From Actinophytocola algeriensis (lineage in GTDB: Bacteria > Actinomycetota > Actinomycetes > Mycobacteriales > Pseudonocardiaceae): a DNA stretch of 64,000 nt. Below, one piece after another: positions 7,725-56,969 of this stretch. Position 1 is the stretch's first letter. Each line of letters begins with the position of its first letter. The stretch spans positions 1-64,000 of the forward strand of contig NZ_JACHJQ010000009.1 in assembly GCF_014203735.1 (NCBI RefSeq), read 5' to 3'. The translations under genes and the position numbers were made by a program. Below the pieces are notes generated by a model that saw only the letters and a list, made by a program, of their open reading frames with translations, was not told the origin of the DNA and ran no database searches.

Positions 7725-7830
7725 TGTGGACAACCACCCGGAACTGTCGGTGCCCACTGGTAGCGTCGAATCCGGGGGCCCCTGGGCGTGCGAATGGGAC
7801 TTTCGTACGGACTCGATGGCCGGGAACCTT
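7725..7830. repeat. Dispersed intergenic repeat copy with DnaA-box-like 9-mer
   Basis: A TGTGGACAA box (7725-7733) is followed by CTGTCGGTG, TAGCGTCGAA and a GGGGGCCCCTGGGCG segment that leads into GAATGGGACTTTCGTACGG. The latter part matches the three tandem copies at 13889-14120; the first part matches the islands near 19.4 and 56.7 kb. It lies upstream of the LLM oxidoreductase. No gene is seen in 7622-7903. Confidence 0.75.
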
Positions 7831-7903
7831 GCACCGCGTCTGCCATGCGGGTCGGGCGCGGCGAGCGGGAAGAAACCAGCGTGCGCGCGGGTTGTCGTCT
7901 GCT

Positions 7904-8905
7904 GTGACTCCGGTACCGCTTTCCGTGCTCGAACTCGCTCCCGCCGCCCGCGACGCCACCGCGACCGAGGCGCTGCGCAACACCGCTGAGCTGGCAAAAC
8001 GGGTCGAACAGCTCGGCTATCGGCGGATCTGGGTCGCCGAGCACCACAACATGCCGTCGATCGCCAGCTCGTCGCCCGCGGTGCTGATCGCGCACCTCGC
8101 GGCGGTGACGTCGACCATCCGCGTCGGGTCCGGCGGTGTGATGTTGCCCAACCACGCGCCGCTCGTGGTCGCCGAGCAGTTCGGGACGCTCGAGGCACTG
8201 CACCCGGGGCGCGTCGACCTGGGCATCGGCCGCGCGCCGGGCACCGACCAGCGGACCGCGCTGGCACTGCGCCGCACGATGGCGGGGCTGTCGGCGGAGG
8301 GGTTCCCGCAGGAGCTTGCCGATCTCATCGGCTACTTCCAGGGCGACAACGACCTGATCGAGGCGGTGCCGGGCCACGGCAACGAGCCCACGATCTGGCT
8401 GCTCGGGTCCAGCGGTTTCTCGGCCCAGCTGGCGGGGATGCTGGGGCTGCCGTTCTCGTTCGCGCACCACTTCAGCTCGGCCAACACGGTGCCTGCGCTC
8501 GAGCTGTACCGCGAGCACTTCCGCCCGTCGCGGTGGCTGTCGGAGCCGTACGCGAAGGTCGCGGTGAACGTGATCTGCGCCGACACGGACGACAAGGCCC
8601 GCTGGCTGGCCGGCCCGTCGGCGCTGGCCTTCCTGAAGCTGCGGACCGGCAAGCCGGAGGCGCTGGTGCCGCCGGAGGAGGCGGCGGAGTACCCGTACAA
8701 CGAGCTGGAGCAGGCGTTCGTCGAGGACCGCTGGCGCGACCAGGCGGTCGGCTCACCGGAGACGGTGGAGCGGCAGCTGCAGAACCTGCTGACCCGTACC
8801 GGCGCGAACGAACTGATGCTGACGACGATGGTCTACGACCTCGAAGCCCGCACCCACTCGTTCGAACTGGTGGCGGAGAAGGTAGCCCCGACCCTGACCC
8901 GCTGA
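7904..8905 (+). CDS. LLM-class flavin-dependent oxidoreductase (luciferase-like)
   Basis: A 333-aa protein. The GTG at 7904 (VTPVPLSVLELAPAARDATATEAL) fits the family N-terminus; the frame from 7829 would add 25 Arg-rich residues. Family signatures are YRRIWVAEHHNMPSIASSSP, RVGSGGVMLPNHAPLVVAEQFGTLEALHPGRVDLGIGRAPG and a C-terminal GSPETVERQLQ. Members use FMNH2 (or F420) for monooxygenation or dehydrogenation, and the substrate is unknown. No clear Shine-Dalgarno is present, so it may be leaderless. It is monocistronic, with intergenic repeat islands on both sides. Confidence 0.88.
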   Translation: MTPVPLSVLELAPAARDATATEALRNTAELAKRVEQLGYRRIWVAEHHNMPSIASSSPAVLIAHLAAVTSTIRVGSGGVMLPNHAPLVVAEQFGTLEALHPGRVDLGIGRAPGTDQRTALALRRTMAGLSAEGFPQELADLIGYFQGDNDLIEAVPGHGNEPTIWLLGSSGFSAQLAGMLGLPFSFAHHFSSANTVPALELYREHFRPSRWLSEPYAKVAVNVICADTDDKARWLAGPSALAFLKLRTGKPEALVPPEEAAEYPYNELEQAFVEDRWRDQAVGSPETVERQLQNLLTRTGANELMLTTMVYDLEARTHSFELVAEKVAPTLTR

Positions 8906-8950
8906 GCCACCCCCGGAAATCGCTCGCGCGCGTTACCCAGCCCCCACCCT

Positions 8951-9048
8951 GTCCCGGGGGCGTCCCGCCTTGCCAGCTTACCGGGTGGTACCGACGGATA
9001 CCCCGTTGTCGATCTTGCCTGTGGACAACTCGGTCGGCTGTGGACAAC
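8951..9048. repeat. Dispersed intergenic repeat copy with paired DnaA-box-like 9-mers
   Basis: A segment starting CCGGGGGCGTCCCGCCTTGC is shared with 31768-31860. It is followed by GTTGTCGATCTTG and two TGTGGACAA boxes at 9020-9028 and 9039-9047, 19 bp apart. The pair ends about 40 bp before the -10 of the aldo/keto reductase gene. Confidence 0.8.
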
Positions 9049-9097
9049 TCGGGGTTCGCGGCAGGCGGGTGTCATGGCCCCGGCCTACTGTGGCGGC

Positions 9098-9949
9098 ATG
9101 ACTGACGCGGTGGCTTCTGGCACCTTCCAGCTCGGCGGCGATCTGCCGGTGGTGCGGCTCGGGTACGGCTCCATGCAGCTCACGGGATACGGCGTGTGGG
9201 GCGAGCCGGACGACCCCGCGCAGGCGGTGCGCGTGCTGCGGCGAGCCGTGGAGCTGGGGGTCAACTTCATCGACACGGCCGACTCGTACGGGCCGTTCGT
9301 GGCGGAGCTGCTGATCCGCGAGGCGCTGCACCCTTACGACGGGGTGTTCGTCGCGACGAAGGCCGGGTTCACGCGGCAGGGGCCGCACCAGTGGACGGCG
9401 GTCGGGCGGCCGGAATATCTGCGGCAGCAGGTGGAGCTGTCGTTGCGGCACCTCGGCGTGGAGCGCATCGACCTGCTGCAGCTGCACCGGATCGACCCGA
9501 CGGTGCCGGTCGCGGACCAGGTCGGGGAGCTGGCCGAGCTGCGGTCGGAGGGCAAGATCCGGCACATCGGGCTGTCGGAGGTGTCGGTCGCCGACATCGA
9601 GGAGGCGTCGCGGACGGCGCGGATCGTGTCGGTGCAGAACCTGTACAACGTCGCCAACCGGCGCGCGGAGGACGTGCTGGAGTTCTGTGCGGCGGGGGAC
9701 ATCGGGTTCATCCCGTGGTTCCCGCTGGCGACCGGTGAACTGGCGGGGGAGCGCGGGCCGTTGGCCTCGATGGCCCGGGAGCACTCGGCTTCGCCTTCAC
9801 AGCTGGCGCTGGCCTGGTTGCTGCGGCGGTCGCCGGTGATGTTGCCGATCCCGGGGACGTCGAGCGTCGAGCACCTGGAGGAGAACATCGCGGCCGCCGG
9901 GATCGAGCTGACCGACGACGAGTTCGAGGCGGTCTCCAAGGCCGCGTGA
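9098..9949 (+). CDS. Aldo/keto reductase
   Basis: A 283-aa NADPH-dependent aldo/keto reductase. The tetrad is visible: Asp in FIDTADSYG, Tyr in the same motif, Lys in VFVATKAGF and His in DLLQLHRID. The cofactor-side motif MLPIPGTSSVEHLEEN is near the C-terminus. ATG 9098 is preferred over 9074, because a TACTGT box (9085-9090) is 7 nt upstream and implies a leaderless mRNA. Substrates are typically aldehydes or ketones, and none can be assigned. A hairpin at 10025-10052 follows. Confidence 0.9.
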   Translation: MTDAVASGTFQLGGDLPVVRLGYGSMQLTGYGVWGEPDDPAQAVRVLRRAVELGVNFIDTADSYGPFVAELLIREALHPYDGVFVATKAGFTRQGPHQWTAVGRPEYLRQQVELSLRHLGVERIDLLQLHRIDPTVPVADQVGELAELRSEGKIRHIGLSEVSVADIEEASRTARIVSVQNLYNVANRRAEDVLEFCAAGDIGFIPWFPLATGELAGERGPLASMAREHSASPSQLALAWLLRRSPVMLPIPGTSSVEHLEENIAAAGIELTDDEFEAVSKAA

Positions 9950-10024
9950 GGTCGTCGGCCTGGCCACCGGGGGCCGCGCCCGTCGATCCCGGGCGGCCCG
10001 GCCCACTCCCATCGAGGCGTTGGG

Positions 10025-10104
10025 GGCCGCCTGAGGGGCGGCTCAGGCGGCCGGAGCAGGCCGACGGTGGCGCCGACAAACGTGGATGAGGATGGTCATC
10101 CACG
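10025..10104 (+). terminator. Two hairpins downstream of the aldo/keto reductase gene
   Basis: Arms GGCCGCCTGAG (10025-10035) and CTCAGGCGGCC (10042-10052) form a strong stem. A second stem, CGTGGATGA (10081-10089) with TCATCCACG (10096-10104), follows. The first is a likely terminator. The 408-nt gap 9950-10357 otherwise holds only the HxlR upstream region. Confidence 0.6.
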
Positions 10105-10293
10105 GCTCGGATTGTCTTGGCGCCACCGTCGTCCCGGCTCCCCGACCCGCAACCGAAGTTGGCGCGGTCCCCCATTTCGTACACGGAAGGCCTCGGCACA
10201 CTGCAAGGTGCGTAGCACCCTGACATGTGGGTGCGCCGCCGCGACCTGCGGAGACGAAGAAGTGCCTTCACTCGTTCGGCGTAGTGCATCCAG

Positions 10294-10312
10294 GGGAACA
10301 CGGAGCGTTCCC
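10294..10312. promoter_or_regulatory. Inverted repeat upstream of the HxlR gene
   Basis: GGGAAC (10294-10299) and GTTCCC (10307-10312) are separated by 7 nt, 45 bp before the HxlR start codon. This is a plausible autoregulatory operator, by position only. Confidence 0.4.
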
Positions 10313-10357
10313 ATCGGGCACACTGGGATCCGAACACCATGTCTGGAGGGGGCAGGG

Positions 10358-10777
10358 ATGCACGAGGAGAACCTGCCGTACCGGCACGGCATCCACGAGG
10401 CGATGGGCGTGCTGTCCGGGCAGTGGGTGACCGCGGTCCTCGCGTCGCTGACCGCCCGGCCGATGACCTACTCAAAGTTGCTCGAACACATCAACCACTC
10501 CGAAGAGCGACACGGATGGGTTACCCATGAGCGCCCACTACGACAGAAGGTGCTCACCGACACGTTGCACCGCATGCAACGCGACGGCCTCGTGGTCAAG
10601 ATCAGCCGCCCGAGCCGCTTCGGCTCGACGTGGTACCAGCTGACCCCGATGGGACGGTCGTTGTTGCGGTCGTTGCTGCCACTCGCGAAGTGGGCGGAGG
10701 ACCACCGGGGCGATCTGTCACAGGCGCGGGCGGCGTACTTGGCGGCACAGCAAGCCGCGGTGAAGTCGGACAAGTAG
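10358..10777 (+). CDS. HxlR-family winged-helix regulator
   Basis: A 139-aa protein with the HxlR layout: a short N-terminal helix, LSGQWVTAVLASLTARPMTYSKLLEHI, recognition helix QKVLTDTLHRMQRDGLV and a wing ending in FGSTWYQLTPMGRSLL. ATG 10358 follows a strong GGAGGGGG RBS, and the longer frame upstream is noncoding. It lacks the usual N-terminal Cys of redox-sensing HxlR proteins, so a redox role is not supported. It has an insertion (NHSEERHGWVTHERPLR) between helices. The target is unknown; no divergent partner is present. Confidence 0.82.
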   Translation: MHEENLPYRHGIHEAMGVLSGQWVTAVLASLTARPMTYSKLLEHINHSEERHGWVTHERPLRQKVLTDTLHRMQRDGLVVKISRPSRFGSTWYQLTPMGRSLLRSLLPLAKWAEDHRGDLSQARAAYLAAQQAAVKSDK

Positions 10778-10830
10778 GCGCGCCAGGGCCGCCGAGCCCA
10801 GCGCGCCCCGACCGGACCGTTCGCCCGGCC

Positions 10831-13575
10831 TCAGTGCCCGTTGAGGTCACCGATCGCCGCCACGATGCTCTGCACCTGGTTCCGGCCGGAGTCCTTCGCG
10901 ACGAACAACGCGTCGTCCGCCGCGAGCAGCACATCCTGCAGCTCAGGCCCGAACTCCGGGTACAACGCGATCCCGATGGACACGGACAGCCCGTCGATCA
11001 CCGCGCCGCCCTCGGTCGGGACCCGCAGCTCACGCACCCGCTCGCACATCCGCTCGGCGATCGCCCGCAGCGCCTCGGACGTGACCTCCGGGCACAGGAC
11101 CACGAACTCCTCGCCGCCCCACCGCCCCACCACGTCGTACCGACGCGCTGACGCGGCCAGCACATCGGCGACCGCCTGCAACACCTGGTCGCCGACCAGA
11201 TGCCCGTGGGCGTCGTTGACCGCCTTGAAGTGGTCCAGGTCCACCATCAGCACCCCGACCTGCGACTCGTCCCGCGCGGCGCGCTGGATCTCGGCGGTCG
11301 CGAGGTTCGTCCACGATGTCGCGTTGGCCAGCCCCGTCTTCTGGTCGGTGGAAGCGGCCTCCTCCAGCTGCCGCATCAGCACGCTGCGGTGCAGCACCAG
11401 CAACGCGGGCACGATCATCACCGCCCACAGCGGGTTGAAGCTGATCAGCAGACCGGTGATCGCACCGAGGCCGAGGGTGCCGTACTCGAGCGCGTTCTCC
11501 TTGCCGGTGCCGAGCGCGCGACGAATGTCGAGGCGCTTCTCGTGCAGCGTGATCGCGCAGGCGACGAGACCCGAGTTCACGCACGAGTAGGCGACCACGG
11601 CCACCGCGACCGCGACCACCACCAGCGGCTGGTCCCACGCGCCGAGGCTTTCCGGCGCGAACAGGTGCCGGATGGTCCACGCGGTGTGCGCGGACAACAC
11701 GACCGTCGACGCCGTGAACACCAGCCGGTACGGGCGGACGCCGCGGACGCGGTACCAGCTGCGCCAGAACAGGTGGATGTAGAGCAAGCAGATCACGACC
11801 GGTGTGAGCACGGGCGGCAGCACGAGCGCGGCGGAGAACGTCCACACCGACGTCAGGTTCACGTGCGGGGTGTCGTTGAAGCGCCGCCGTACCCGCTCGA
11901 CATGCCGGGACAGCTCACCCATCGTCACACCGAGGAAGACGATGATGCCGAGCGTGACCATCGCGTTCCGGTCGACGACGGAGTGGCCGGCGAGGAAAGC
12001 CGTGACCCCGATCGCCGCGGCTTCCACGAACAGGATGAGCGCCAGCACTCTCGCCGGCTCGTCCCACAGCGCCCAGCGCCACGGTGCCCTGGACCGCTCA
12101 CCAGTCGAAAGGGATGCTGGTTGGGCCGATCGGGCGAAAACCACCTGATCAGCGGCGCCATTGCCGTGCTCGGCGGCAGTCCCCGCGGGAGGAGGTGCGA
12201 ACGATGACGAACAAGGACTGGTGATCTCCGTGCTCTGACCTATGGCCTGGTCAGAGGCCTTGACGTCGGATTCGTCATCCCCATCCGCGGGAGGAGGTGC
12301 CTTCGATGATGAACAAGGACTGGTGAGCTCCCCGTGCTTCTCGGCGTCGTCGGGTTCGCGCCCACCCGTCCGTTCGGGTGACAGCTCTCTGCGGGAGCGG
12401 GCGCGAAGCCACGACACGCCACTGAGTCCGGTCAACGCCACTCCGGCTACACCTCCGGTCGCGACCGCGAGGACGGGATCGGTCGCGTCGGCCAGGACAC
12501 CGGCGGCGAGCACCGCGACGCCCTGTGACGACAACACCCCCGCGCCCGCGAGTCCGGCGGCAGCGCCCCGACGGTGGTCGGGGACGCCGACGACGAACGC
12601 CGCCTGCGCGAGGATCAGATAGGCGGTGGCGCACGCTCCGGAGATCGCCCAGAGCAGCACCACCACGACCAGCGGTGGCTGGAAGAAGCACAACACGAGT
12701 GGCACGCCGGAAGCGACGGCGAGCCAGGACGTCATCTCGGCCCGCCGATCCTGCGGCAGCCTCGGCACGAGCCATGCGCCGACGATGCTGCCCGCGGGAT
12801 CGGCGGCCATCAGCAACCCGACGCCGATGGCGGCGGCGCCGAGCGTGTCGGCGTACGGCGCGGCGAGACCTTCGGGGATGGTGAAGATCCCGACCGTCCA
12901 GGACAGTGCGACCAGCGCGCGGAGCCTGCGGTCCGCCCAGAGCATCCGGACGGTGCCGGTGTCCCGCGGGTGGGACTGGGGTGCGGACGGCACGGGCCGG
13001 TGCCGGACGCGGGTGGCGACCACGACCGCCGCGACCACGAACGTGACGGCGTTGAGCCCGAGCGCGACGTGCGGGTCGAGCACGACGAGCAACGCGCCGC
13101 CGCCGAGGAACCCGGCGACCTGCGCGAACTGGTTGCTGACGGTCCGCAGTGAGAGGCCGGTGACGTACCGGTCGCCTTCGAGGATCGTGGGGAGGAGCGC
13201 TTGCTGCGCGGCCTTGAACGGCGCGCCGCCGAGGGTGAGCAGGAAGACCAGCGGCAGCAGTACGGGCAGCGGCAGGCCGGGCAGGGCCATGCCGCCGGCG
13301 ATGACGGCCCGTGCGAGGTCGGAGCCGATCATCAGCTCGCGGCGCGGGAACCGGTCGGCCAGCGGGGACAGCAGAACCCCGCCGAGGAGGGCGGGGAGAA
13401 AGGTCAGCGCGTAGGTGAGAGCGGTCCAGCCCGCCGAGTTCGTATGTCGGTACACGAGCACGGCGAGGCCGACGCGCGCGAGCTGGTCACCCGCGACCGA
13501 CAGCAGCTCCGCGGCCCACAGCGCGCGAAACTCACGCACCGCGAGAACATCGCGAAACCCCGCCTGACGCCCCAT
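10831..13575 (-). CDS. Fusion of MFS transporter and membrane GGDEF diguanylate cyclase
   Basis: One open frame of 914 codons. Residues 1-400 are a 12-helix MFS permease (LSPLADRFPRRELMIGSDLARA is the loop 2-3 motif). Residues about 405-500 are a hydrophilic linker carrying the duplicated motif TSPCSSS-x-APPPA. Residues 505-725 form 6-7 further membrane helices. Residues 735-905 are a GGDEF domain with an intact GGEEF active site and an upstream RxxD inhibitory site (RRYD). An intact cyclase should make c-di-GMP. The fusion is unusual: it could be a transport-sensing cyclase, or two adjacent genes joined in frame. No RBS-preceded start is obvious inside the linker. Confidence 0.7.
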   Translation of the reverse strand: MGRQAGFRDVLAVREFRALWAAELLSVAGDQLARVGLAVLVYRHTNSAGWTALTYALTFLPALLGGVLLSPLADRFPRRELMIGSDLARAVIAGGMALPGLPLPVLLPLVFLLTLGGAPFKAAQQALLPTILEGDRYVTGLSLRTVSNQFAQVAGFLGGGALLVVLDPHVALGLNAVTFVVAAVVVATRVRHRPVPSAPQSHPRDTGTVRMLWADRRLRALVALSWTVGIFTIPEGLAAPYADTLGAAAIGVGLLMAADPAGSIVGAWLVPRLPQDRRAEMTSWLAVASGVPLVLCFFQPPLVVVVLLWAISGACATAYLILAQAAFVVGVPDHRRGAAAGLAGAGVLSSQGVAVLAAGVLADATDPVLAVATGGVAGVALTGLSGVSWLRARSRRELSPERTGGREPDDAEKHGELTSPCSSSKAPPPADGDDESDVKASDQAIGQSTEITSPCSSSFAPPPAGTAAEHGNGAADQVVFARSAQPASLSTGERSRAPWRWALWDEPARVLALILFVEAAAIGVTAFLAGHSVVDRNAMVTLGIIVFLGVTMGELSRHVERVRRRFNDTPHVNLTSVWTFSAALVLPPVLTPVVICLLYIHLFWRSWYRVRGVRPYRLVFTASTVVLSAHTAWTIRHLFAPESLGAWDQPLVVVAVAVAVVAYSCVNSGLVACAITLHEKRLDIRRALGTGKENALEYGTLGLGAITGLLISFNPLWAVMIVPALLVLHRSVLMRQLEEAASTDQKTGLANATSWTNLATAEIQRAARDESQVGVLMVDLDHFKAVNDAHGHLVGDQVLQAVADVLAASARRYDVVGRWGGEEFVVLCPEVTSEALRAIAERMCERVRELRVPTEGGAVIDGLSVSIGIALYPEFGPELQDVLLAADDALFVAKDSGRNQVQSIVAAIGDLNGH
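12187..12326 (+). repeat. Duplicated Shine-Dalgarno plus six-codon mini-ORF, antisense to the MFS-GGDEF linker
   Basis: Two copies lie exactly 102 bp apart. Each has GGGAGGAGGTG (12187-12197 and 12289-12299), then 6 nt, then ATG-(ACG or ATG)-AAC-AAG-GAC-TGG-TGA (12204-12224 and 12306-12326). On the plus strand they would encode M-T-N-K-D-W and M-M-N-K-D-W with ideal SD spacing. On the minus strand the same DNA is the repeated TSPCSSS-x-APPPA linker. Differences between copies fall in the SD-ATG spacer and codon 2 only. Whether the peptides are made is unknown. Confidence 0.45.
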
Positions 13576-13748
13576 CCCGCCGTCCTCGCTCCGCTGCCGA
13601 CGGGCCGTCCGGCCGAACTCGCACGACCCGTCGTCACGACCCTAGGTCCAACCCAGACCGAGAACGCGGTCACGCCCGTTGTCCACCCAAATGGCCCATC
13701 GGGGTAACTGATAGTGATCTCGCTGGGGAGCCTCCGTTTCGTCTCCAC

Positions 13749-14120
13749 GCTACCGGTACCCACCGACAGGCCCGTTTCACCTGCGGTTCAGGGGTCCGGT
13801 CAACCCCGTGCGCCGGGAGGACGGTGGGCTGGGGACAACCGGCTCGCGACGGCCCGGACCTGTCGGTGGACGCCGGTAGCGTGGAAACCGGGGGCCCCTG
13901 GGCGTACGAATGGGACTCTCGTACGGGTTCGCGCCGGCCGGCACTTCGGGTTCGGCGGCGCTCGGTCGTAGGCTGGAAATCGGGGGACCCCTGGGCGTGT
14001 GAATGGGACTCTCGTACGGAGTCGCGTTCTTCGGCGCTTCCCGGCCGGCCGCGGTCGCCGTAGGCTGGAAACCGGGGGACCCCCGGTCGTACCAATGGGA
14101 CTTTCGCTCGGGGTCGCTCG
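13749..14120. repeat. Inverted core plus three tandem ~93-bp repeats
   Basis: An inverted pair with cores CTACCGGTACCCACCGACAG (about 13754) and CTGTCGGTGGACGCCGGTAG (about 13861) is followed by three tandem units. These are anchored at GAATGGGACTCTCGTACGG starting 13908 and 14001, and a diverged CAATGGGACTTTCGCTCGG at 14093. Each unit is preceded by a TAGGCTGGAAA/TAGCGTGGAAA and GGGGGMCCC block. A degenerate DnaA-like box TGGGGACAA is at 13830. A fourth copy of the unit is at 7776-7830. The region 13576-14133 has no convincing gene. Confidence 0.75.
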
Positions 14121-19341: not shown

Positions 19342-19523
19342 GGCCTCCGGCCCCCGGTTCAACGCTACGGCGTACCACCGACATTTCCGGACGCCCGGAC
19401 GACGGTTGTCCACAGCCGGCCGCGGGCTCGGTTCGGCAGCGTTGAGGGGTGTGGACAACCTCCGCTCCGCGGCCCGGAACTGTCGGCGCCTTGCCGTAGC
19501 GTCGAACCCGGGGGCCGGAGGCC
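19342..19523. repeat. Large inverted repeat with two opposed DnaA-box-like 9-mers
   Basis: The outer arms are 19342-19371 (begins GGCCTCCGGCCCCCGG) and 19493-19523 (ends CCGGGGGCCGGAGGCC), complementary over about 30 bp. Inside are CACCGACA and TGTCGGCG, then TTGTCCACA (19406-19414) and its complement TGTGGACAA (19450-19458). The whole element sits between convergent genes and is flanked by their 3' ends, with no gene inside. Confidence 0.85.
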
Positions 19524-31688: not shown

Positions 31689-31756
31689 TCCACCGGCGAT
31701 CGTGATCCCACAGCCATTTGACCCGCGACATTCGCCGAACCGGCCAGTACGCAACC

Positions 31757-31860
31757 CCCACCCGAACCCGGGGGCGTCCCGCCTTGCCATTCTACCGGCT
31801 GGGTGGGACGGCCCCGGGTTGTCGATCTTGGTTGTGGATAACCGGGTGTGCTGTGGATAA
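31757..31860. repeat. Dispersed intergenic repeat copy with paired DnaA-box-like 9-mers
   Basis: CCCGGGGGCGTCCCGCCTTGCC and GTTGTCGATCTTG match the island at 8951-9048. Two TGTGGATAA boxes lie at 31833-31841 and 31852-31860, again exactly 19 bp apart. The island lies between convergent mug and the secreted repeat protein, and nothing else is seen in 31689-31864. Confidence 0.8.
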
Positions 31861-31864
31861 CTTG

Positions 31865-33064
31865 TCACCACGTGCTGTTGATCAGTCCCGTGCCGACGTT
31901 CACCTCATCGAAGTCGTCGCCGTCCGCGTCGTCGCTGTAGGTCATCGTGATGTGGCCGTACGGGCTGACCGCCAAGGCCGGCTGGTTCTGCCGGCCCGTG
32001 GCGGACGGGTTGGCCCGCACCTGTGGCTGGCGGCCCGCGCCGGTGCCGTCCGGGTTGAGTCCCCGCAGGTACACGTCGTCGCCGAGGGTCCAGTACGCCA
32101 CCGCGTAACGCTGGTCGTCCAGGCCCACCTGTGGGTCGTTGCCCGGGAGGAACACCTCGGCAGGCGCTGTACCCGTTGCGGTGAAGGAACGTACGCCGAT
32201 CTGGTCCGCTCCCTGGTGATCGGTTTCCCAGCCCACCACGAAGTCGCCGTTGAAGTTCGCGGCCACCGTCGCGTTCCGCTGCTGGTCGCCGGTGGCCTGG
32301 TTCGCCACACGTTTGGCGATCTTCACGGCACCGCTCGGGGTGAAGCTCGCAAGACCGACGTTGTAGTACCCGTTGGCGTCGATGTCCTCGTCCCACACGA
32401 CGATCGCGTTGCCTGCCGCGCCCATCGCGACGTCCGGGTGGCGGTTGGTGCCGCCCGCGGCGTGCACGCGGATCTCGTAGCTCTTCGACGTGACCGACGC
32501 GAAGCCGGACAGGCGGACCGTCGGTTCGGCATCCGTCTGCTCGTCCTCGAACACGACCGCGAAGCCCGCTCCGTCGGGGTCGGCGGCGACCTCGGGGTTG
32601 ACCTGCTGACCCGCGGCGGTCGCGTTGGCCACTGTCGAGCCGGTCTGCGTGCCCGCGGCGTTGAACGTCAGGACCCTGATCTGGTAGTACCCGTTGCCGT
32701 CCGGATCCTCGGCGAACACGACCACCGCGCTGCCGTCGTCGCGGACCGCCACGTCGGGCTGGACGTGCCGCCAGTTCCCCGTGCCGCCCGTGGACACCTT
32801 CTTCTCGTACAGCGAGGTGCCGTCGCGATACAGCCGTATGAACACCTCGGTGTGCACACTGTCGTTCGGGGCTGTGGTGTCGCGGTCGTCCTCCCACACC
32901 ACCGCCGTGTAGCCGGTGCGGGACACCGCGACCGACGAGTTGTCCTGGTCGCCGGCGGCCGTCGTGTTGACCCTGGCCCAGGTGAGCGTCCCGTCCGCCG
33001 TGGCGAGGGGAGCGGTCAGCAGTCCGAGGGCGACCACCAGCACCGGGATGATGACGTGTCTCAT
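31865..33064 (-). CDS. Secreted repeat protein with acidic DxDxNGYY motifs (beta-propeller-like)
   Basis: A 399-aa protein with a signal peptide (MRHVIIPVLVVALGLLTAPL, cleavage after ATA). The mature protein is 6-7 repeats of about 50 residues, each with a W/F-acidic turn such as FAEDPDGNGYYQIRV, WDEDIDANGYYNVGL, FEDEQTDAEPTVRLSGF or YSDDADGDDFDEVNV. The acidic loops resemble calcium-binding turns, and the repeat length fits a beta-propeller. The function is unknown. It begins 14 nt after the PhoD stop, so the two are one operon. It may act with the phosphatase at the cell surface. Confidence 0.75.
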   Translation of the reverse strand: MRHVIIPVLVVALGLLTAPLATADGTLTWARVNTTAAGDQDNSSVAVSRTGYTAVVWEDDRDTTAPNDSVHTEVFIRLYRDGTSLYEKKVSTGGTGNWRHVQPDVAVRDDGSAVVVFAEDPDGNGYYQIRVLTFNAAGTQTGSTVANATAAGQQVNPEVAADPDGAGFAVVFEDEQTDAEPTVRLSGFASVTSKSYEIRVHAAGGTNRHPDVAMGAAGNAIVVWDEDIDANGYYNVGLASFTPSGAVKIAKRVANQATGDQQRNATVAANFNGDFVVGWETDHQGADQIGVRSFTATGTAPAEVFLPGNDPQVGLDDQRYAVAYWTLGDDVYLRGLNPDGTGAGRQPQVRANPSATGRQNQPALAVSPYGHITMTYSDDADGDDFDEVNVGTGLINSTW

Positions 33065-33078
33065 GAACACACCCCTGT

Positions 33079-50916: not shown

Positions 50917-50951
50917 CCGGAAGCAGTCATCCACAGCCTTGTCGGACCCGC

Positions 50952-50979: not shown

Positions 50980-50987
50980 TTGTCATT

Positions 50988-51320: not shown

Positions 51321-52036
51321 CCGAGGCCAACGTGGCGGTCGAGGTGGAGGTCGACCCGGCCACCGCGTTCGACCTGTTCACCAGGGACATCGCCGCGTGG
51401 TGGCGTGCGGACCGCTCGCTGTGGGGTGAGACAGAGGGGGAGTTGCGCTTCGAGAACGGTGCGCTGATGCAGGGCGACACCGAGGTCGGCCGGGTGTCCA
51501 CATGGGAGCCGGGGCCGCGGCTTGCCTTCAGCTACGGCCCGCCCGGTGTCGATCCGGCGGAGCGGACGGATGTGGAGGTCCGTTTCGAGGCGGTGCGGGG
51601 CGGCACCCGTGTCGTCGTGCGGCACGGCGGCTGGGAGAAAGCGAACTGGGCGGGGCTTTTAGCCGGGTTCGCCCGGCACTCACTGGAACGGATGCTGCTC
51701 GCCCGGCTGGGGGACTTCCTGGACGCGATAGCGGAGGGGAACGTCGAGTTCTTCGAACGGAACCTCACTGACGAGGCGATGCTGATCTTTCCCGGTGAGG
51801 GCAACACATACACGAAAGCCCAGTGTGTCGCCGCGATGGTCGACCATCCCGTGTACCACAAGTACGAACTGACCGATCCGCATATTGTCCACATTGGAGA
51901 GTCGACGGCGGTGCTCACGCATCGCGCCACGGTCATGCACGAGCAGCACGAACGACCGATGTCGGTCGCGGTGTCGACGGTGCTCGTGCACCGGGACGGC
52001 GAGTGGCGTCTGGCGCTCCACCAGTGGACCCAGTGA
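51317..52036 (+). CDS. SRPBCC (AHSA1)-SnoaL/DUF4440 fusion protein
   Basis: A 239-aa protein. Residues 1-135 are an AHSA1-type domain (VEVEVDPATAFDLFTRDIAA, GRVSTWEPGPRLAFSYGPPG, GGTRVVVRHGGWEKANW). Residues 140-239 are a SnoaL-like domain (AIAEGNVEFFERNLTDEAML, AAMVDHPVYHKYELTDPHIV, VAVSTVLVHRDGEWRLALHQ). The two domains are usually separate proteins. The ATGA overlap with the ArsR gene indicates translational coupling. A VOC protein follows 10 nt after. The ligand is unknown. Confidence 0.82.
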   Translation: MTEANVAVEVEVDPATAFDLFTRDIAAWWRADRSLWGETEGELRFENGALMQGDTEVGRVSTWEPGPRLAFSYGPPGVDPAERTDVEVRFEAVRGGTRVVVRHGGWEKANWAGLLAGFARHSLERMLLARLGDFLDAIAEGNVEFFERNLTDEAMLIFPGEGNTYTKAQCVAAMVDHPVYHKYELTDPHIVHIGESTAVLTHRATVMHEQHERPMSVAVSTVLVHRDGEWRLALHQWTQ

Positions 52037-52046
52037 TGGGAGCACG

Positions 52047-52694
52047 ATGTACTACGTGATCCGCGCGCCGGACCTGGCGCGTGCCAAGGACTTCTACACA
52101 GCCGTGTTCGGCTGGAGCTACACCGAGGACCACCACATCCAGGGCAGTTCGCCTGCTGGCGGTCTGGCCGAGGGCGAGCCGGGCACCGACCTGTACCTCG
52201 AGGTGCCGGACGCGGCGGCGGCCGTGGCGCTGTTGCGTGAGCTCGGCAGGGAGGCGCCCGACCCCGTGCTGTCGAAGTCCGGGTGGAGTTGTCAGGCCGA
52301 GGGCGGCCTGCTCGCGCTGTGGCAGCCCGCGGACGGGTATGCGCAGGACAACCCCAAATGCGCGGAAGGTGACCTCTTCTACTTCGTCGTCCCGGTCGCG
52401 GACGACGCGGCGTTGGAGCGCTACCGAGCGGTGCTCGGCTGGGAGTTGTCGACCGGCTCCCATCCGAACGGGTGGAACATCGAGAACTCCGAACCGCCGG
52501 GTGGTGTGTTCGTTGATCACGCCGGACGTCCTGACCTGTACTTCCGGGTGGCCGACGTCGACGAGGCCGCGCGGCGCATCCGTGACGCCGGTGGCACCGC
52601 GGGCGACACACAACCGAATTCGGCCGGTTGGCATGCCTCGTGCAGCGACGATCAGGGGGTGAGTTTCAACATCGGTGCACTGCGTCAGAGCTGA
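52047..52694 (+). CDS. Two-domain VOC (glyoxalase-like) protein
   Basis: A 215-aa protein with tandem VOC halves: MYYVIRAPDLARAKDFYTAVFGW, LYLEVPDAAAAVALLREL, then FYFVVPVADDAALERYRAVLGW and LYFRVADVDEAARRIRDAGG. The proteins of this operon (ArsR, AHSA1, VOC) commonly co-occur. The N-terminus is short, lacking the typical first His-strand, so metal binding may be incomplete. Start 52047 follows a GGGAG RBS-like stretch. Confidence 0.85.
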   Translation: MYYVIRAPDLARAKDFYTAVFGWSYTEDHHIQGSSPAGGLAEGEPGTDLYLEVPDAAAAVALLRELGREAPDPVLSKSGWSCQAEGGLLALWQPADGYAQDNPKCAEGDLFYFVVPVADDAALERYRAVLGWELSTGSHPNGWNIENSEPPGGVFVDHAGRPDLYFRVADVDEAARRIRDAGGTAGDTQPNSAGWHASCSDDQGVSFNIGALRQS

Positions 52695-52748
52695 CGTCGC
52701 GTACTAGGGTTCCTCCGACGGCGGTGTGTTTTTGGGGAGGGGTCCGAG

Positions 52749-53705
52749 TTGGGTGACGGACGGTTGGAGATCGACCGCATCTCCAAGCGATACGGCGATG
52801 TGGTCGCGTTGCGGGACACGACATTCGACGTACGCGCGGGAGAGCTGTTCGGTTTCGTCGGCAGCAACGGTGCAGGCAAGACCACGACGATGCGCATCAC
52901 TCTCGGTGTGCTCGCCGCGGACTCCGGTGAGGTGCGCTGGGGCGGTGAGCGGATCACGCTCGAAACGCGGCGGCACATCGGGTACATGCCGGAGGAACGT
53001 GGGCTCTACCCGAAGATGAAGGTCGGCGAGCAGCTGATCTACCTCGCCAGGATGCACGGCCTTTCCGCCAAGGACGCGAAGGCATCTACGGAGGAGTGGA
53101 CCGAGCGGCTCGGTGTCGCGCACCGGCAGGGCGACGACGTCCAGAACCTGAGCCTGGGCAACCAGCAGCGCGTGCAGCTCGCTGCCGCGCTGGTGCACAA
53201 CCCGAGCATCCTCGTGCTGGACGAGCCGTTCTCCGGGCTCGACCCGATCGCCGTCGACGTGATGAGCAAGGTGCTGCTGGACAAGGCGGCCGAGGGCATC
53301 CCCGTGGTGTTCTCCAGCCACCAGCTGGAACTCGTGGAACGACTCTGCGACCGCGTCGGGATCATCCGTAGTGGGCAGATGGTCGCGATCGGCGAGGTCG
53401 ACGAGCTGCGCTCGGGCGGGGCGGCCGAGCTGGTCGTCGTCGCGCCGAACGCCGCGCCGGGCTGGGCCGCCGGACTGGCCGGGGTCACGGTGCGCGAGCA
53501 GGACGGTGACCGCACCGTGCTCGAACTCGGTGACGGGGCCGACGACCAGGCCGTGCTGCACGCGGCGCTGGCGACCGGGCCGGTGACCGAGTTCAGCAGG
53601 CAGCGCCCGTCGCTGACCGAGCTGTACCGCGAAGTGGTGACGCAGGAGACCGACGAGGACGCGGCGCCGGGCGCCGAGCGGAACGAGGCAGGTGTCACGG
53701 CATGA
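52749..53705 (+). CDS. ABC transporter ATPase (NatA-like)
   Basis: A 318-aa protein. Walker A is GSNGAGKT, then the Q-loop region HIGYMPEERGLYPKM, signature LSLGNQQRVQLAAALVHNP and Walker B ILVLDEPFSGLDP, with H-loop SSHQLELVE. The C-terminal 80 residues (VVVAPNAAPGWAAGLAG) are the regulatory extension of DrrA/NatA-type exporters. TTG 52749 is chosen because GGGGAGGGG lies 6 nt upstream. It overlaps the permease by 4 nt. It likely drives sodium or drug export. Confidence 0.92.
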   Translation: MGDGRLEIDRISKRYGDVVALRDTTFDVRAGELFGFVGSNGAGKTTTMRITLGVLAADSGEVRWGGERITLETRRHIGYMPEERGLYPKMKVGEQLIYLARMHGLSAKDAKASTEEWTERLGVAHRQGDDVQNLSLGNQQRVQLAAALVHNPSILVLDEPFSGLDPIAVDVMSKVLLDKAAEGIPVVFSSHQLELVERLCDRVGIIRSGQMVAIGEVDELRSGGAAELVVVAPNAAPGWAAGLAGVTVREQDGDRTVLELGDGADDQAVLHAALATGPVTEFSRQRPSLTELYREVVTQETDEDAAPGAERNEAGVTA

Positions 53706-54907
53706 GCACTCCGGATGTCCGGCTGGGGGCGTGGGAAGCGGTGCGGCTCGTCGCGAGCCGGGAGGTCACCACGAAGATGCGGTCGAAGGCGTTCATCATC
53801 ACGACCGTCGCGACGCTCGTGCTGCTCATCGGGTTCGCGCTGGTGATGAAGCTGAGCGAAGGGTCGGGCGAGACGGTCGGCGTCACGCAGGAGACGCAGG
53901 CGCTCGCCGAGCCGCTGAAGGCCACCGCGGGGCAGATCGGGCAGAGCGTCGACACCACGGTCGTCTCCGAGGAGGAGGGCCGCGAACAGGTCGCCGACGG
54001 GACGCTCGACGCGCTGCTCGTCGGTGGCGACGACGATCAGCCGCTGCGGGTCGTGGTCGAGAAGGATCTCGACGGCGATCTCAAGAACGCGTTCACCGTG
54101 CTCGCCGGGCAGCTCGCGCTCAACCAGGAGATCGCCGAGCTCGGTGGTGACCCGGCACAGGTGCAGTCGTCGGTCGCGAGCGCGCAGGTGGACGTCGAGC
54201 CGCTGGAGGAGCCCTACCCGTACCAGCCGGAGCAGCTCGTGCTGGGCATCATCGCGGGCGTTCTGATCTACATGTCGCTGCTGTTGAACGGGCAGCTGGT
54301 GGCGCAGGGTGTGGTCGAGGAGAAGTCCAGCCGCGTGGTCGAGCTGCTCCTGTCGACCATCCGGCCGTGGCAGTTGATGGCGGGCAAGGTGCTGGGCATC
54401 GGGTTCGTCGGGTTCGTGCAGATGGTCGTGGTCGGCGGCGGCGGTCTCATCGCGGCGCTGGCGCTCGACGTGCTGTCGATACCGGTGTCGGCCGCCATCG
54501 GCACGGTGGTGTGGCTGATCGTCTGGTACATCCTCGGTTTCGTCATGTACTCGCTGGTGTTCGCCGCGCTCGGGGCCCTGGTGTCCCGGCAGGAGGACGT
54601 CGGTGGCGTCATCACGCCCGCGCTGATGTTCGTCATCGTCGGTTACGTCGTCGGCATCTCGGTGCTGCCATCGGAACCGGACAACACGCTCGCGGAGGTG
54701 CTGTCGGTCATCCCGGTGTTCGCGCCGACGCTGATGCCGATGCGGCTCGCGATGGGTGGTGTTCCGGTGTGGGAGATGATCGTCTCGGTCGGACTCGTCA
54801 TCGTGCTGATCCCGTTGCTCGTGTGGCTGGCAGGGCGGATCTACGCCAACGCCGTGATGCGCAGTGGGGCGAAGGTCAAGCTGCGGGATGCGATGAAGCC
54901 CGCATAA
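53702..54907 (+). CDS. ABC-2 type permease (NatB-like)
   Basis: A 401-aa protein. One TM helix near residue 30-50 is followed by an extracellular domain (about 55-185), then 5-6 TM helices (VLGIIAGVLIYMSLLLNGQL, VLGIGFVGFVQMVVVGGGGL, IVWYILGFVMYSLVFAALGA, VIVGYVVGISVL, MIVSVGLVIVLIPLLVWL). The motif EEKSSRVVELLLSTIRPWQLMAGK in the first cytoplasmic loop is typical of NatB/YhaP-type exporters. Start ATG overlaps the ATPase stop. Function with the ATPase as a two-component exporter is well supported; the substrate is not. Confidence 0.9.
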   Translation: MSTPDVRLGAWEAVRLVASREVTTKMRSKAFIITTVATLVLLIGFALVMKLSEGSGETVGVTQETQALAEPLKATAGQIGQSVDTTVVSEEEGREQVADGTLDALLVGGDDDQPLRVVVEKDLDGDLKNAFTVLAGQLALNQEIAELGGDPAQVQSSVASAQVDVEPLEEPYPYQPEQLVLGIIAGVLIYMSLLLNGQLVAQGVVEEKSSRVVELLLSTIRPWQLMAGKVLGIGFVGFVQMVVVGGGGLIAALALDVLSIPVSAAIGTVVWLIVWYILGFVMYSLVFAALGALVSRQEDVGGVITPALMFVIVGYVVGISVLPSEPDNTLAEVLSVIPVFAPTLMPMRLAMGGVPVWEMIVSVGLVIVLIPLLVWLAGRIYANAVMRSGAKVKLRDAMKPA

Positions 54908-54989
54908 CCGCTGGTCACTCACGGCAACGGGGTACGATCATTACTGTCAAGTAGACCCGCCATGACCGCCCACTGTCGGGGAGGCGTTC

Positions 54990-55637
54990 GTGATCAAGGT
55001 GCTGCTCGCGGATGATGAAGATCTCGTCCGCTCAGGACTACGCACAATTCTGACCAGCGCCGGTGACATCGAGGTGGTCGCCGAGTGTGACGACGGCGTG
55101 CACGTCGCCGATCTGGCACGGCAGCATCGACCACATGTCGTGCTGCTGGACATCCGGATGCGTTCGGCGGACGGGATCGTCGCTCTGCGTAAGATCCGTG
55201 CTCTGCCGGACCCGCCGGTCGTCTCCATGCTGACCACCTTCGACGTCGACGAGTACGTCCAGGAGGCGCTGCGCATCGGCGCGAGCGGCTTCCTGCTAAA
55301 GGACACCGAGCCCGCCGTGCTGATCAAGGCCGTGCGTGATCTCGCGCGCGGCGGCGCGGTGCTCGACCCGAAGGTCGCCGCACGCGTGCTGTCCGCGGTT
55401 GCGGACGGTGAGCGAGCGGCGGAGCCTGCGCGCCGCCTGCTGGCGTCTCTGTCCGACCGGGAGCGAGAAGTGGTCGCGCTCATCGGGCAGGGGCTGTCCA
55501 ACGCGGAGATCGGCAGCGCGCTGCACCTGTCGGAGGCCACGGTCAAGGGGTACGTGTCCGCGGTGCTCGGCAAGATCGGCGCGGTGAACCGGGTGCAGGC
55601 GGCGCTCGTGGCCTACCGGGGTGGCCTTATCGCTTGA
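54990..55637 (+). CDS. NarL/LuxR-type response regulator (orphan)
   Basis: A 215-aa protein. The receiver domain has D8/D9 acidic pocket, phosphoacceptor D54 (VVLLDIRMRSADG) and a Lys in FLLKD. The LuxR helix-turn-helix is LSDREREVVALIGQGLSNAE, IGSALHLSEATVKGYVSAVLGKIGAVNRVQAA. GTG 54990 follows GGGGAGG. No histidine kinase is adjacent in the window. It lies 82 nt after the NatAB-like exporter, so it may be its regulator, as in exporter-regulator sets. Confidence 0.93.
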   Translation: MIKVLLADDEDLVRSGLRTILTSAGDIEVVAECDDGVHVADLARQHRPHVVLLDIRMRSADGIVALRKIRALPDPPVVSMLTTFDVDEYVQEALRIGASGFLLKDTEPAVLIKAVRDLARGGAVLDPKVAARVLSAVADGERAAEPARRLLASLSDREREVVALIGQGLSNAEIGSALHLSEATVKGYVSAVLGKIGAVNRVQAALVAYRGGLIA

Positions 55638-55664
55638 CCTCTACCTTGCTTGAGGTTCAAGACT
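55634..55664 (+). promoter_or_regulatory. MerR-type promoter (19-bp spacer) of the quinone oxidoreductase gene
   Basis: TTGACC (55634-55639) and AAGACT (55659-55664) are 19 bp apart, and the spacer contains the inverted repeat ACCTC-N10-GAGGT (55637-55656). This long-spacer, dyad-within-spacer layout is the hallmark of promoters activated by MerR/SoxR-family proteins. Transcription would start at about the ATG 55671. No merR-like gene is in the window. Confidence 0.7.
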
Positions 55665-55670
55665 GGCCGC

Positions 55671-56630
55671 ATGCGAGCTGTAGAGGTGACGAAGCACGGC
55701 GGACCCCAGGTGCTGGCCGTTCGTGAGGTGCCCGACCCCGTGGCCCGAGCCGGCCAAGTGGTGATCGACGTCGCGGCGGTCGACGTGCTGTTCGTGGACA
55801 CGCGGATCCGCGCAGGCTGGGGCAAGGAGTGGTTCCAGGTCGAGCCACCGTACGTGCCGGGCAACGGGGTCGCGGGTGTCGTGCGCGAGGTTGGCGCGGA
55901 CGTGGACGAGTCGTGGGTGGGGCGGCGCGTGCTCGCCTACACCGGCGAGAACAACGGCATGACGCCGACCGGTGGGTATGCCGAGCGCGCGGCGGTGCCC
56001 GTGTCCGCGGTCGTGCCGGTACCGGACCGGCTCGGACTGCCCGAGGCGCTCACCTTGCTGCACGACGGCCCGATGGTGGTGGGCACGCTGAAGACGGCGG
56101 ACGTGCGGACGGGTGAGCGGGTGCTGATCACCGGCGCGGGCGGCAGCCTGGGCACGCTGCTGGTGCCGATGCTGAAGGCGGCCGGAGCGGTGGTCGTCGG
56201 CGCGGCAAAGGGCGCGCGCAAGCTCGACTTCATCCGTGAGTGGGGCGCGGACGAGGCGGTCGACTACTCCGTTCCGGAGTGGACAGAGCAGGTCGGCGCG
56301 GTGGACGTGGTCCTCGACGGGACCGGCGGGGACATCGGCACGGCCGCGTACCAGTTGGTGCGTACGGGCGGCCGGTTCCTGGCGTACGGGTCGTCGGCGG
56401 GCGACTTCGCGAAGACCGAACCCGCGCGTGAGGGCGTGACGGTGGTATCGATCCTGGACATCGGCAAGGACGTCGACCAGTCGTCGGCGATCGCCGAGAT
56501 GCTCGCGAAGGCGGTGGACGGGACGATCACACCGCTGGTGGGACAGACGTTCCCACTGGACAAGGCCGTGGAAGCGCACGAGGCGATCGCGGCACGTCAG
56601 ACGGTGGGGAAGACACTGCTGCTGCCGTGA
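55671..56630 (+). CDS. Zinc-type/quinone oxidoreductase (medium-chain dehydrogenase)
   Basis: A 319-aa MDR protein: MRAVEVTKHGGPQVLAVREV, VLFVDTRIRAGWGKEWFQVEPPYVPGNGVAGVVREVG, with the nucleotide-binding motif ITGAGGSLGTLLVPMLKAAG and VDVVLDGTGGDIGTAAYQLV, then YGSSAGDF. It lacks the catalytic-zinc Cys/His of alcohol dehydrogenases, so it is a QOR-like NADPH:quinone reductase. ATG 55671 is preceded by a MerR-type promoter and is likely leaderless; the longer frame adds a few residues only. Confidence 0.9.
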   Translation: MRAVEVTKHGGPQVLAVREVPDPVARAGQVVIDVAAVDVLFVDTRIRAGWGKEWFQVEPPYVPGNGVAGVVREVGADVDESWVGRRVLAYTGENNGMTPTGGYAERAAVPVSAVVPVPDRLGLPEALTLLHDGPMVVGTLKTADVRTGERVLITGAGGSLGTLLVPMLKAAGAVVVGAAKGARKLDFIREWGADEAVDYSVPEWTEQVGAVDVVLDGTGGDIGTAAYQLVRTGGRFLAYGSSAGDFAKTEPAREGVTVVSILDIGKDVDQSSAIAEMLAKAVDGTITPLVGQTFPLDKAVEAHEAIAARQTVGKTLLLP

Positions 56631-56637
56631 CCGGCGC

Positions 56638-56969
56638 GGCCTCCGGCCCCCGATCACCAGCGTAGCGCCGGGCACCGACATCGACGGGCGTCGTGAACCG
56701 AGTTGTCCACAGGGGGTGGCGTGCGGGCGCCTCCGGCCCCCGGAATCCAGCGTAATGGCGGGCACCGACAACGACCGGGGCCGCGAGCCGAGTTGTCCAC
56801 AGGGTGGCCTGTGGGCGGCCTCCGGCCCCCGGAATCCAGCCTAGCGGCGAGCACCGACACTCGGCGGTCGTGCGAGGCTGGTTGTCCACAGCGGCTGTGG
56901 TTGTCCACAGAACCCGCGGTGAGCACCGGTTTTGTCGGTGGTGTGCCGTAGCGTGGTTCGAGGGGGACG
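56638..56969. repeat. Three tandem ~90-bp units with DnaA-box-like 9-mers, plus an inverted unit
   Basis: Units start at 56641, 56731 and 56820 with CTCCGGCCCCCGG, each continuing through CACCGACA to TTGTCCACA at 56703-56711, 56793-56801 and 56882-56890. A fourth box is at 56901-56909, 19 bp after the third. An inverted piece, TGTCGGTGGTGTGCCGTAGCGTGG, follows at about 56935. The array lies between the convergent 3' ends of the oxidoreductase and rpsR. Nothing resembling a gene is present in 56631-56996. Confidence 0.9.

What the first reader, a model, noticed from the sequence alone, without database searches (positions are those of the whole stretch)
7725..56909. DnaA-box-like 9-mers concentrated in five dispersed intergenic repeat islands, with a conserved 19-bp pair spacing
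TTGTCCACA (or its complement) occurs at 7725, 9020, 9039, 19406, 19450, 56703, 56793, 56882 and 56901, and TTATCCACA at 31833 and 31852. About 0.5 perfect TTGTCCACA sites are expected by chance in 64 kb on both strands. All are intergenic. Pairs at 9020/9039, 31833/31852 and 56882/56901 are each exactly 19 bp apart although the surrounding islands differ. TTGTCCACA matches the actinobacterial DnaA box. These could be DnaA titration or regulatory sites, or a mobile repeat that carries them. They also share CACCGACA/TGTCGGTG, TAGCGT and GGGGGCC.
Basis: partly seen in the sequence, partly recalled or inferred. Interest (0 to 1): 0.85.

Follow-up and report, generated by a model that had tools for sequence, protein, structure and literature searches.

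The report
Tandem DnaA boxes mark DNA-uptake promoters
The dispersed "DnaA-box" islands are copies of one promoter-like module, two DnaA-type boxes 19 bp apart followed at a fixed distance by a -10 element, and the same module stands before genes that some actinobacteria would use to take up and recombine foreign DNA, whose control is still unknown.

Summary
In detail: 10 TTGTCCACA and 2 TTATCCACA in the window (0.27 and 0.01 expected), three pairs at 19 bp. Genome-wide there are 102 exact 19-bp pairs, none in the reversed control. The pair is half of a promoter: of 100 listed pairs, 82 have TANNNT at +39 to +41, 2 at any of 20 flanking offsets. The shared CACCGACA/TAGCGT words resemble the RecA-NDp (PafBC) DNA-damage promoter, though only 18 of 102 pairs meet a strict form of it. 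About 88 copies are dispersed repeats (types A, B), including the window's. At least nine precede genes: comEA-comEC, yraN-comM, ssd/tad, recA, SAF, M23, DUF4192, two AbiEi-like. Gene-first test, 30 family genomes each: a pair at 18 or 19 bp lies upstream of yraN in 24, comEA in 23, recA in 16; downstream control 0 of 30 each. I read it as the operator, probably DnaA-bound, of an actinobacterial DNA-uptake/recombination regulon, amplified as repeats in some lineages. Sequence geometry and gene association are shown; binding protein, effect and role of the repeats are inferred. My searches listed no such motif; competence control in this phylum is called unidentified.

The parts
9020..9047 (-). 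Tandem box pair TTGTCCACA-N10-TTGTCCACA, operator part of a type A island
8941..8980 (-). Type A promoter and conserved block: -10 TAAGCT (8980-8975), then GGCAAGGCGGGACGCCCCCGGGACAGGGTGGGGG; points into the 3' end of the + strand gene 7925-8905
31833..31860 (-). Tandem box pair TTATCCACA-N10-TTATCCACA of a type A island, 4 nt past the end of the - strand gene 31865-33070
31755..31794 (-). Type A promoter and conserved block, -10 TAGAAT at 31794-31789
56882..56909 (+). Tandem box pair TTGTCCACA-N10-TTGTCCACA at the centre of a type B island
56932..56954 (+). Promoter motif TTGTCGGTG-N8-TAGCGT downstream of the pair, -10 beginning at +40 after the pair
56838..56859 (-). Divergent promoter motif TGTCGGTG-N8-TAGGCT of the same island
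56749..56771 (-). Further type B promoter motif TTGTCGGTG-N8-TACGCT with single box 56793-56801(+)
56659..56680 (-). Further type B promoter motif TGTCGGTG-N8-TACGCT with single box 56703-56711(+)
19362..19383 (-). Type B promoter motif, left arm of an inverted-repeat island; single box 19406-19414(+)
   Evidence: (I1)
19481..19502 (+). Type B promoter motif, right arm of the same island; single box 19450-19458(-)
   Evidence: (I1)
7745..7766 (+). Type B-like promoter motif TGTCGGTG-N8-TAGCGT with single box 7725-7733(-)
13747..13768 (-). Type B-like promoter motif without a perfect box (nearest TTGTCCACC at 13679)
13861..13882 (+). Type B-like promoter motif without a perfect box; two further degenerate copies have TAGGCT at 13969 and 14061
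51885..51893 (+). Single TTGTCCACA inside a coding sequence; taken as chance, not part of an island

Best explanation
The 19-bp tandem pair (GTTRTCCACAG twice) is an operator at about -79 to -52 before a sigma-A-type promoter whose -10 (TANNNT) begins 39-41 nt after the pair; between them many copies carry an element like that of PafBC/RecA-NDp promoters (GTCRG). The module belongs to a DNA-uptake and recombination regulon of some Actinomycetes (comEA-comEC, yraN-comM-dprA, ssd/tad pilus, an SSB paralogue, recA, radA), often with a start codon at the predicted start site (leaderless). The protein that most likely binds the pair is DnaA. In this genome and, probably independently, in a few relatives the module has been copied into dozens of intergenic repeats; the window's islands are such copies and may act as extra promoters, decoys, or only as tolerated mobile promoters. 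Shown here: sites, spacing, promoter-like geometry, gene association, conservation. Inferred: promoter activity, the binding protein, the sign of regulation, co-expression, and any role of the repeats.
For: 102 exact pairs, 0 reversed-control. TANNNT at +39..+41 in 82 of the 100 listed pairs, against 2 with it at any of 20 flanking offsets; divergent TANNNT at 39 (27 pairs) and 49-50 (14), one helical turn apart. Nine gene-facing pairs in the own genome: comEA, yraN, ssd/tadZ, recA, SAF/CpaB-like, M23 peptidase, DUF4192, two AbiEi/DUF559-like; eight of them (not ssd) have a possible start codon at +52..+54. Operons and families. Same genes in congeners. Gene-first test, the 30 best of 60 family genomes per gene, <=2 mismatches at spacing 18/19: yraN 24/30, recA 16/30, comEA 23/30; downstream control 0/30 for each; shuffled upstream 0/600 for yraN and 0/600 for recA; all C9 genes 3 of 327. 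A looser -10 ([TC]ANNNT) begins at +39..42 in 60 of those 63 promoters. Beyond the family, of 27 loci found by the pair alone, 6 precede recA, 3 ssd, 2 the SAF gene, 2 yraN (several of these by neighbours or by eye only); radA in Microtetraspora. One DnaA-domain protein over the cut-off.
Against: No expression or binding data. In the congeners strict TANNNT stands at +39..41 in only 33 of 67 pairs, and in the other 34 at no offset from +31 to +56. The RecA-NDp element is clear in recA, radA and many repeats but not general: GTCRG at the right place in 40 of 100 own pairs, the strict composite in 18 of 102, and it is weak or absent at yraN and most com-type promoters, so PafBC control of those is doubtful. 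14 of 30 recA, 7 of 30 comEA and 6 of 30 yraN loci lack the pair, G001 yraN among them. The 18/19-bp pair is in only 41 of 394 genomes of the class and the strict composite in 1 of 396 of the phylum, the own genome. Several gene-facing pairs precede genes without a known link to DNA uptake (DUF4192, M23), and several class-wide hits look like chance. The oriC boxes of this genome are not spaced 19 bp. Whether this organism is transformable is unknown, and its comM is cut short.
Confidence: 0.7

Rival explanations
1. The pair is the operator of another, unidentified activator or repressor whose site happens to equal a tandem DnaA box; the rest of the model stands.
For: The 18/19-bp spacing is not seen at this genome's oriC boxes; competence regulators of other phyla are dedicated proteins (recalled).
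Against: Each half site matches the actinobacterial high-affinity DnaA box, with A or G as third base (the sites were chosen at <=2 mismatches, which favours this). Free DnaA would be expected to occupy such sites.
Confidence: 0.3
2. The islands are only a mobile or selfish intergenic repeat that happens to carry DnaA boxes and a promoter; there is no regulon.
For: About 88 of 100 pairs are repeat copies of two sequence types; lineage-specific numbers: G000 102, G006 101, G034 66, G467 38, at most 25 in the other 146 of 150 family genomes; A. diospyrosa has a different version.
Against: Pairs before comEA and yraN in most, and before recA in half, of 30 family genomes, and before some of the same genes in other families.
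Confidence: 0.1
3. The sites are DnaA titration or reactivation loci (datA/DARS-like) that set initiation timing.
For: Many strong boxes outside oriC; uneven contig distribution of the 100 listed pairs (0 on C2 against 13.6 expected; chi-square p 2e-16).
Against: The link to a -10 element and to particular genes is not needed for titration; the pair number varies from 0 to about 100 among genomes of one family.
Confidence: 0.1
4. The islands are DNA-uptake recognition sequences like those of Neisseria or Haemophilus.
For: Association with uptake genes; frequent place between convergent genes (41 of 100 pairs).
Against: 369 single sites in 9.7 Mb is far rarer than uptake sequences in those genera (about one per kb, recalled), and most pairs are bound to a promoter geometry.
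Confidence: 0.04

Closest known systems
RecA-NDp / PafBC-dependent promoter (tTGTCRgtg-N8-TannnT; PMC5656591 passage; PMC11804915 passages)
   Same: recA and many repeats carry this motif at a fixed place behind the pair; recA also seems to have a LexA-type box upstream (by eye, motif recalled)
   Different: No upstream tandem DnaA box appears in the passages I read; yraN and most com-type promoters here lack a good motif but keep the pair and a -10-like hexamer
DnaA as transcription factor (review PMC8203912, passages)
   Same: DnaA acts at promoters of DNA-repair and developmental genes in other bacteria
   Different: The word competence does not occur in that review's text; an 18/19-bp tandem pair locked to a -10 element is not described in the passages read
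comEA-comEC and tad (Flp pilus) competence genes of Micrococcus luteus (PMC4322843, PMC8467076, PMC12849477, abstracts and passages)
   Same: Same uptake genes; their upstream control is stated to be unidentified (PMC12849477)
   Different: No operator or regulator is given in the passages read; M. luteus itself was not examined here
Competence operators of other phyla (ComK box, CIN box, CRP-S; recalled)
   Same: One operator shared by pilus, ComEA/EC, SSB, DprA and RecA genes
   Different: Sequence and presumed binding protein are unrelated
datA/DARS DnaA-binding loci (recalled)
   Same: DnaA boxes outside oriC
   Different: Those are single loci without a promoter link; here one module occurs up to about 100 times

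Membership tests
DnaA-box regulatory site | Match to the high-affinity actinobacterial DnaA box TTGTCCACA | tested here: met
   Table 1 of PMC4285127 seen
DnaA-box regulatory site | Bound by DnaA | not testable with these tools
   only indirect: a single Bac_DnaA_C protein over the cut-off in the genome
RecA-NDp / PafBC promoter | TTGTCRGTG-N8-TANNNT | tested here: inconclusive
   good matches at recA, radA and many repeats; GTCRG at the right place in 40 of 100 own pairs, strict composite in 18 of 102; not met at yraN and most com-type promoters
RecA-NDp / PafBC promoter | Induction by DNA damage through PafBC | not testable with these tools
   none
Competence regulon operator | Shared site before the DNA-uptake and recombination genes | tested here: met
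   comEA 23/30, yraN 24/30, recA 16/30 family genomes, downstream controls 0/30; ssd/tad and SSB in some genomes
Competence regulon operator | Controls transformability | not testable with these tools
   none
MITE / mobile repeat (for the dispersed copies) | Many similar dispersed copies | tested here: met
   45 type A and 40 type B among 100 pairs
MITE / mobile repeat (for the dispersed copies) | Terminal inverted repeats with target duplication or an empty site | tested here: inconclusive
   type B is an inverted repeat (I1 and I8), explained also by divergent promoters; gyrB-gyrA has an island in G001 and G004 but not in G000, boundaries not resolvable
datA/DARS titration locus | Few DnaA-box clusters acting without transcription | tested here: not met
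   102 dispersed copies, most locked to a -10-like element; ori distance not testable in a 23-contig assembly
DNA uptake sequence | Very high genomic density | tested here: not met
   369 boxes in 9.73 Mb
DUF222/13E12 repeat element | Copies linked to DUF222 genes | tested here: not met
   one DUF222 match in the genome

The most novel reading that the evidence does not exclude
The replication initiator DnaA is itself the master switch of natural transformation and recombination genes in Actinomycetes: by binding an 18/19-bp tandem pair it links replication state to a promoter that ssDNA-activated PafBC can also use, and some lineages have spread this promoter to about a hundred intergenic places, so that entry into the state fires antisense or intergenic transcripts across the core genome.
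Probability: 0.25. Interest if true: 0.95.

Novelty: new variant of a known kind. Interest (0 to 1): 0.8.

Why it matters
How competence is controlled in Actinomycetota is described as little known, and the upstream regulation in Micrococcus luteus as still to be identified (PMC12849477, abstract and passages). A short, searchable operator with fixed promoter geometry makes that question directly testable in many genera, names likely members of the regulon, and suggests a link between replication (DnaA), DNA damage (PafBC) and DNA uptake. It also gives a clear case in which a promoter-like module has been multiplied as intergenic repeats.

Tried and rejected
DUF222/13E12 element as source of the repeats: one DUF222 gene in the genome. 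Known RNA family: the window has only a tRNA at gathering scores. Structured RNA at the 5' end of type A, type B or A. diospyrosa transcripts: five folds no better than shuffles. Second DnaA-domain regulator: only DnaA above the cut-off (one weak hit at E 1.36). oriC as origin of the spacing: boxes there are not at 19 bp (two imperfect ones at 20, counted by hand). Uptake sequences: too rare. Phylum-wide strict composite: own genome only, 1 of 396, but that pattern demanded GTCGGTG-N8-TA and 19 bp. Empty-site test at gyrB-gyrA: inconclusive. The first orientation script failed for most loci and was replaced.

Counts and what was dropped: the pair list shows 100 of 102 places, so all own-genome statistics are on 100, and the two unlisted pairs may lie on the last contigs. 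Three of the 100 are overlapping pairs of one array (C14). Class counts (45 A, 40 B, 15 other) are by regular expression; by eye 3 of the 15 are type A and 3 are unclear. Gene calls come from a home-made finder that missed some genes, so several identities rest on neighbours or on reading the first residues: among the class-wide loci L286, L287, L291, L292 and L299, the congener genes other than those named as tested, and the recA genes outside. Family tests covered the own-genome genes, two SSBs, one DprA, RadA, one Ssd (L290) and one YraN (L297). Of congener pairs 67 of 79 were read (G001 14/14, G002 25/25, G003 7/9, G004 11/11, G005 10/20). In some searches I used the 30 best of 60 genomes, because 30 loci is the cap, so close relatives are favoured. 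The comEA scan used 800 nt upstream, the yraN and recA scans 350 nt upstream plus 30 nt. The genome-contig scan may leave out the window's own records.

Papers: PMC11804915, PMC5656591, PMC8223512, PMC8467076, PMC12849477, PMC4322843, PMC8203912 and PMC4285127 were seen as passages (some with abstract or table pieces), none in full; PMC6789036 and the others as search listings. The statement that no such motif was found in print rests on titles and abstract starts in the ten searches, and on the passages named.
Full report
What was checked. Three pairs lie at exactly 19 bp, same strand. In the whole 9.73-Mb genome TTRTCCACA occurs 369 times against 40 for the reversed pattern, and the exact 19-bp pair 102 times against 0. 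In 1.33 Mb of fetched own DNA (mostly chosen around pairs, so enriched) 100 same-strand pairs are at 19 bp and no other distance up to 300 has more than 2.

The pair belongs to a promoter-like module. Counted from the end of the pair, TANNNT occurs at +39, +40 or +41 in 82 of the 100 listed pairs (26, 33 and 23; none at +31..38 or +42..50; 2 of 100 at any of +29..38 and +42..51). On the other side a divergent TANNNT occurs at 39 (27 pairs) and at 49-50 (14 pairs), one helical turn further. In the congeners the strict form is rarer: 33 of 67 pairs at +39..41, the other 34 at no offset from +31 to +56. In A. diospyrosa 65 of 67 have it at +40 or +41, but most of those were chosen by a pattern that included it. 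This element is clear in recA, radA and many repeats but not in all promoters: GTCRG stands at the right place in 40 of 100 own pairs, and 18 of 102 meet the strict composite.

Two kinds of copies. Of the 100 pairs, 45 (48 by eye) are type A: pair, then TAGACTGGCAAGGCGGGACGCCCCCGGGACAGGGTGGGGG or close; 40 are type B: promoters around the pair with outer GGGGGCCGGAGGCC, seen as an inverted repeat. All pairs together: 41 of 100 lie between convergent genes and 9 between divergent ones, while of 656 intergenic gaps over 60 nt 126 are convergent and 197 divergent. The window's pairs at 9020 and 31833 are type A and the one at 56882 is type B; the 7725, 13.7-14.1 kb and 19.4-kb islands are type B-like with single or imperfect boxes. 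In a contiguous 360 kb all 7 type A blocks that my expression found have a perfect pair. The folded RNA ends are no more stable than shuffles, so I make no claim of an RNA function.

The rest stand mostly before genes. In the own genome nine pairs face the start of: recA; a ComEA (HhH plus SLBB) followed by ComEC; YraN followed by ComM; Ssd/TadZ followed by TadA, further tad-like genes and a DUF4244 protein; a SAF-domain CpaB-like protein (below the NCBIfam cut-off); an M23 peptidase; a DUF4192 protein; and two AbiEi/DUF559-like proteins (that label is recalled; Pfam and NCBIfam gave none for the one tested). All but ssd have a possible start codon at +52 to +54, where a promoter with this -10 would start transcription; at comEA and recA this is an in-frame GTG upstream of the start called by my finder. 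In congeners the same genes recur (67 of 79 pairs read; identities mostly by eye or by neighbours): over G000-G005 comEA in 5 genomes, DUF4192 in 5, the M23 locus in 5, yraN in 4, ssd, SAF and AbiEi-like in 3 each, and an SSB paralogue in 2. In congeners L157, L186 and L201 yraN is followed by a comM-like gene and a third gene; the one tested (L157) is DprA by TIGR00732.

A test that starts from genes. For each of three genes I took the 30 best loci from 60 family genomes and asked for two boxes with at most 2 mismatches in total. yraN: 24 of 30 at spacing 18 or 19. recA: 16 of 30. comEA: 23 of 30. The same scan downstream gave 0 of 30 for each gene. Shuffled upstream gave 0 of 600 for yraN and 0 of 600 for recA; it was not run for comEA. 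Other spacings from 11 to 35 gave 0-2 of 30 at that threshold. Of 327 genes in the contiguous part of contig C9, 3 have a pair facing the start. In 60 of the 63 positive promoters a -10-like [TC]ANNNT begins at +39 to +42 (30 of 33 at spacing 18, 30 of 30 at spacing 19).

How far it reaches. The 19-bp pair is in 97 of 150 family genomes with no reversed-control match in any, and the 18/19-bp pair in 41 of 394 genomes of the class. Of 27 loci beyond the family found by the pair alone, 6 precede recA, 3 ssd, 2 the SAF gene and 2 yraN, some by gene order or by eye; 3 lie beside AbiEi/DUF559-like genes and 2 before DUF222-like genes (labels by eye), and the rest are mixed, several probably chance. 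A scan of named genomes with pair plus RecA-NDp core found 50 stretches: 47 in Actinokineospora diospyrosa, two recA promoters of Pseudonocardia (by eye) and one radA promoter of Microtetraspora (TIGR00416); the pattern allowed gaps of 18 to 30 from pair to TGTCGGTG and only 23-25 occur. A. diospyrosa has its own repeat sequence built on the same module, so the amplification probably happened more than once.

Mechanism. A protein bound at about -79 to -52 with fixed helical phase is in the position of an upstream activator, though a repressor is not excluded. DnaA is my first choice: the half site is the high-affinity box of M. tuberculosis and S. coelicolor (PMC4285127 Table 1), the six bases TCCACA are nearly invariant while the first three vary (sites chosen at <=2 mismatches), and no second DnaA-domain protein passes the cut-off. 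DnaA is known as a transcription factor for DNA-repair and developmental genes in other bacteria (PMC8203912, passages). None of this shows binding. A dedicated competence regulator with the same site is the main rival.

What is known. Flp/Tad pilus genes are needed for transformation in Micrococcus luteus (PMC4322843, abstract and passages), and a 2026 paper says that the upstream signals or regulatory cascade there remain to be identified (PMC12849477, abstract and passages). My searches showed no title or abstract start naming a DnaA-box operator for these genes. I have no evidence that this organism is transformable; its comM is cut short and followed by UvrD-helicase and DarT-like genes.

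Noticed in passing
L081:4882-8183 (G000:C7 about 499.9-503.2 kb): comM of this genome is cut short (360 aa against 497-505 called in three congeners) and followed by UvrD-helicase and DarT-like genes, as if a defence cassette had entered comM.
   Followed up: partly
G000 contigs: The 100 listed pairs are very uneven: 29 on C3 (holds dnaA), none on the 1.32-Mb C2, one on C5; possibly core against accessory or ori-near against ori-far DNA.
   Followed up: partly
L071 (G000:C14:33301-33366): Four TTGTCCACA boxes in a row at exact 19-bp steps.
   Followed up: no
window 31833-31864 and ten other rows with distance 0-4: Eleven pairs begin 0-4 nt after a stop codon, as if the left end of the element were GAG-TTGTCCACA.
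   Followed up: no
window 9000-9020 and 31810-31832; A further recurring word GATCTTG / CAAGATCGACAAC lies just beside many pairs in this genus and in A. diospyrosa.
   Followed up: no
L003, L151, L183, L190, L202: In G000 and four congeners a pair points at the 3' end of the same dehydrogenase-like gene (label recalled), with an ATG at +52/53 opening an antisense frame of 65-150 aa.
   Followed up: partly
L288, L289: In two genomes of another family of the order (one genus, g38) a pair precedes DUF222-like (13E12-type) genes; label by eye, the family scan failed.
   Followed up: no
L172, L204 against L195: A type A island lies between gyrB and gyrA in G001 and G004; G000 has only about 33 nt there.
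   Followed up: partly
window 74-174: A separate palindromic repeat (AAAGGCGC..GCGCCTTT) near the window start; similar words lie beside type A islands.
   Followed up: no
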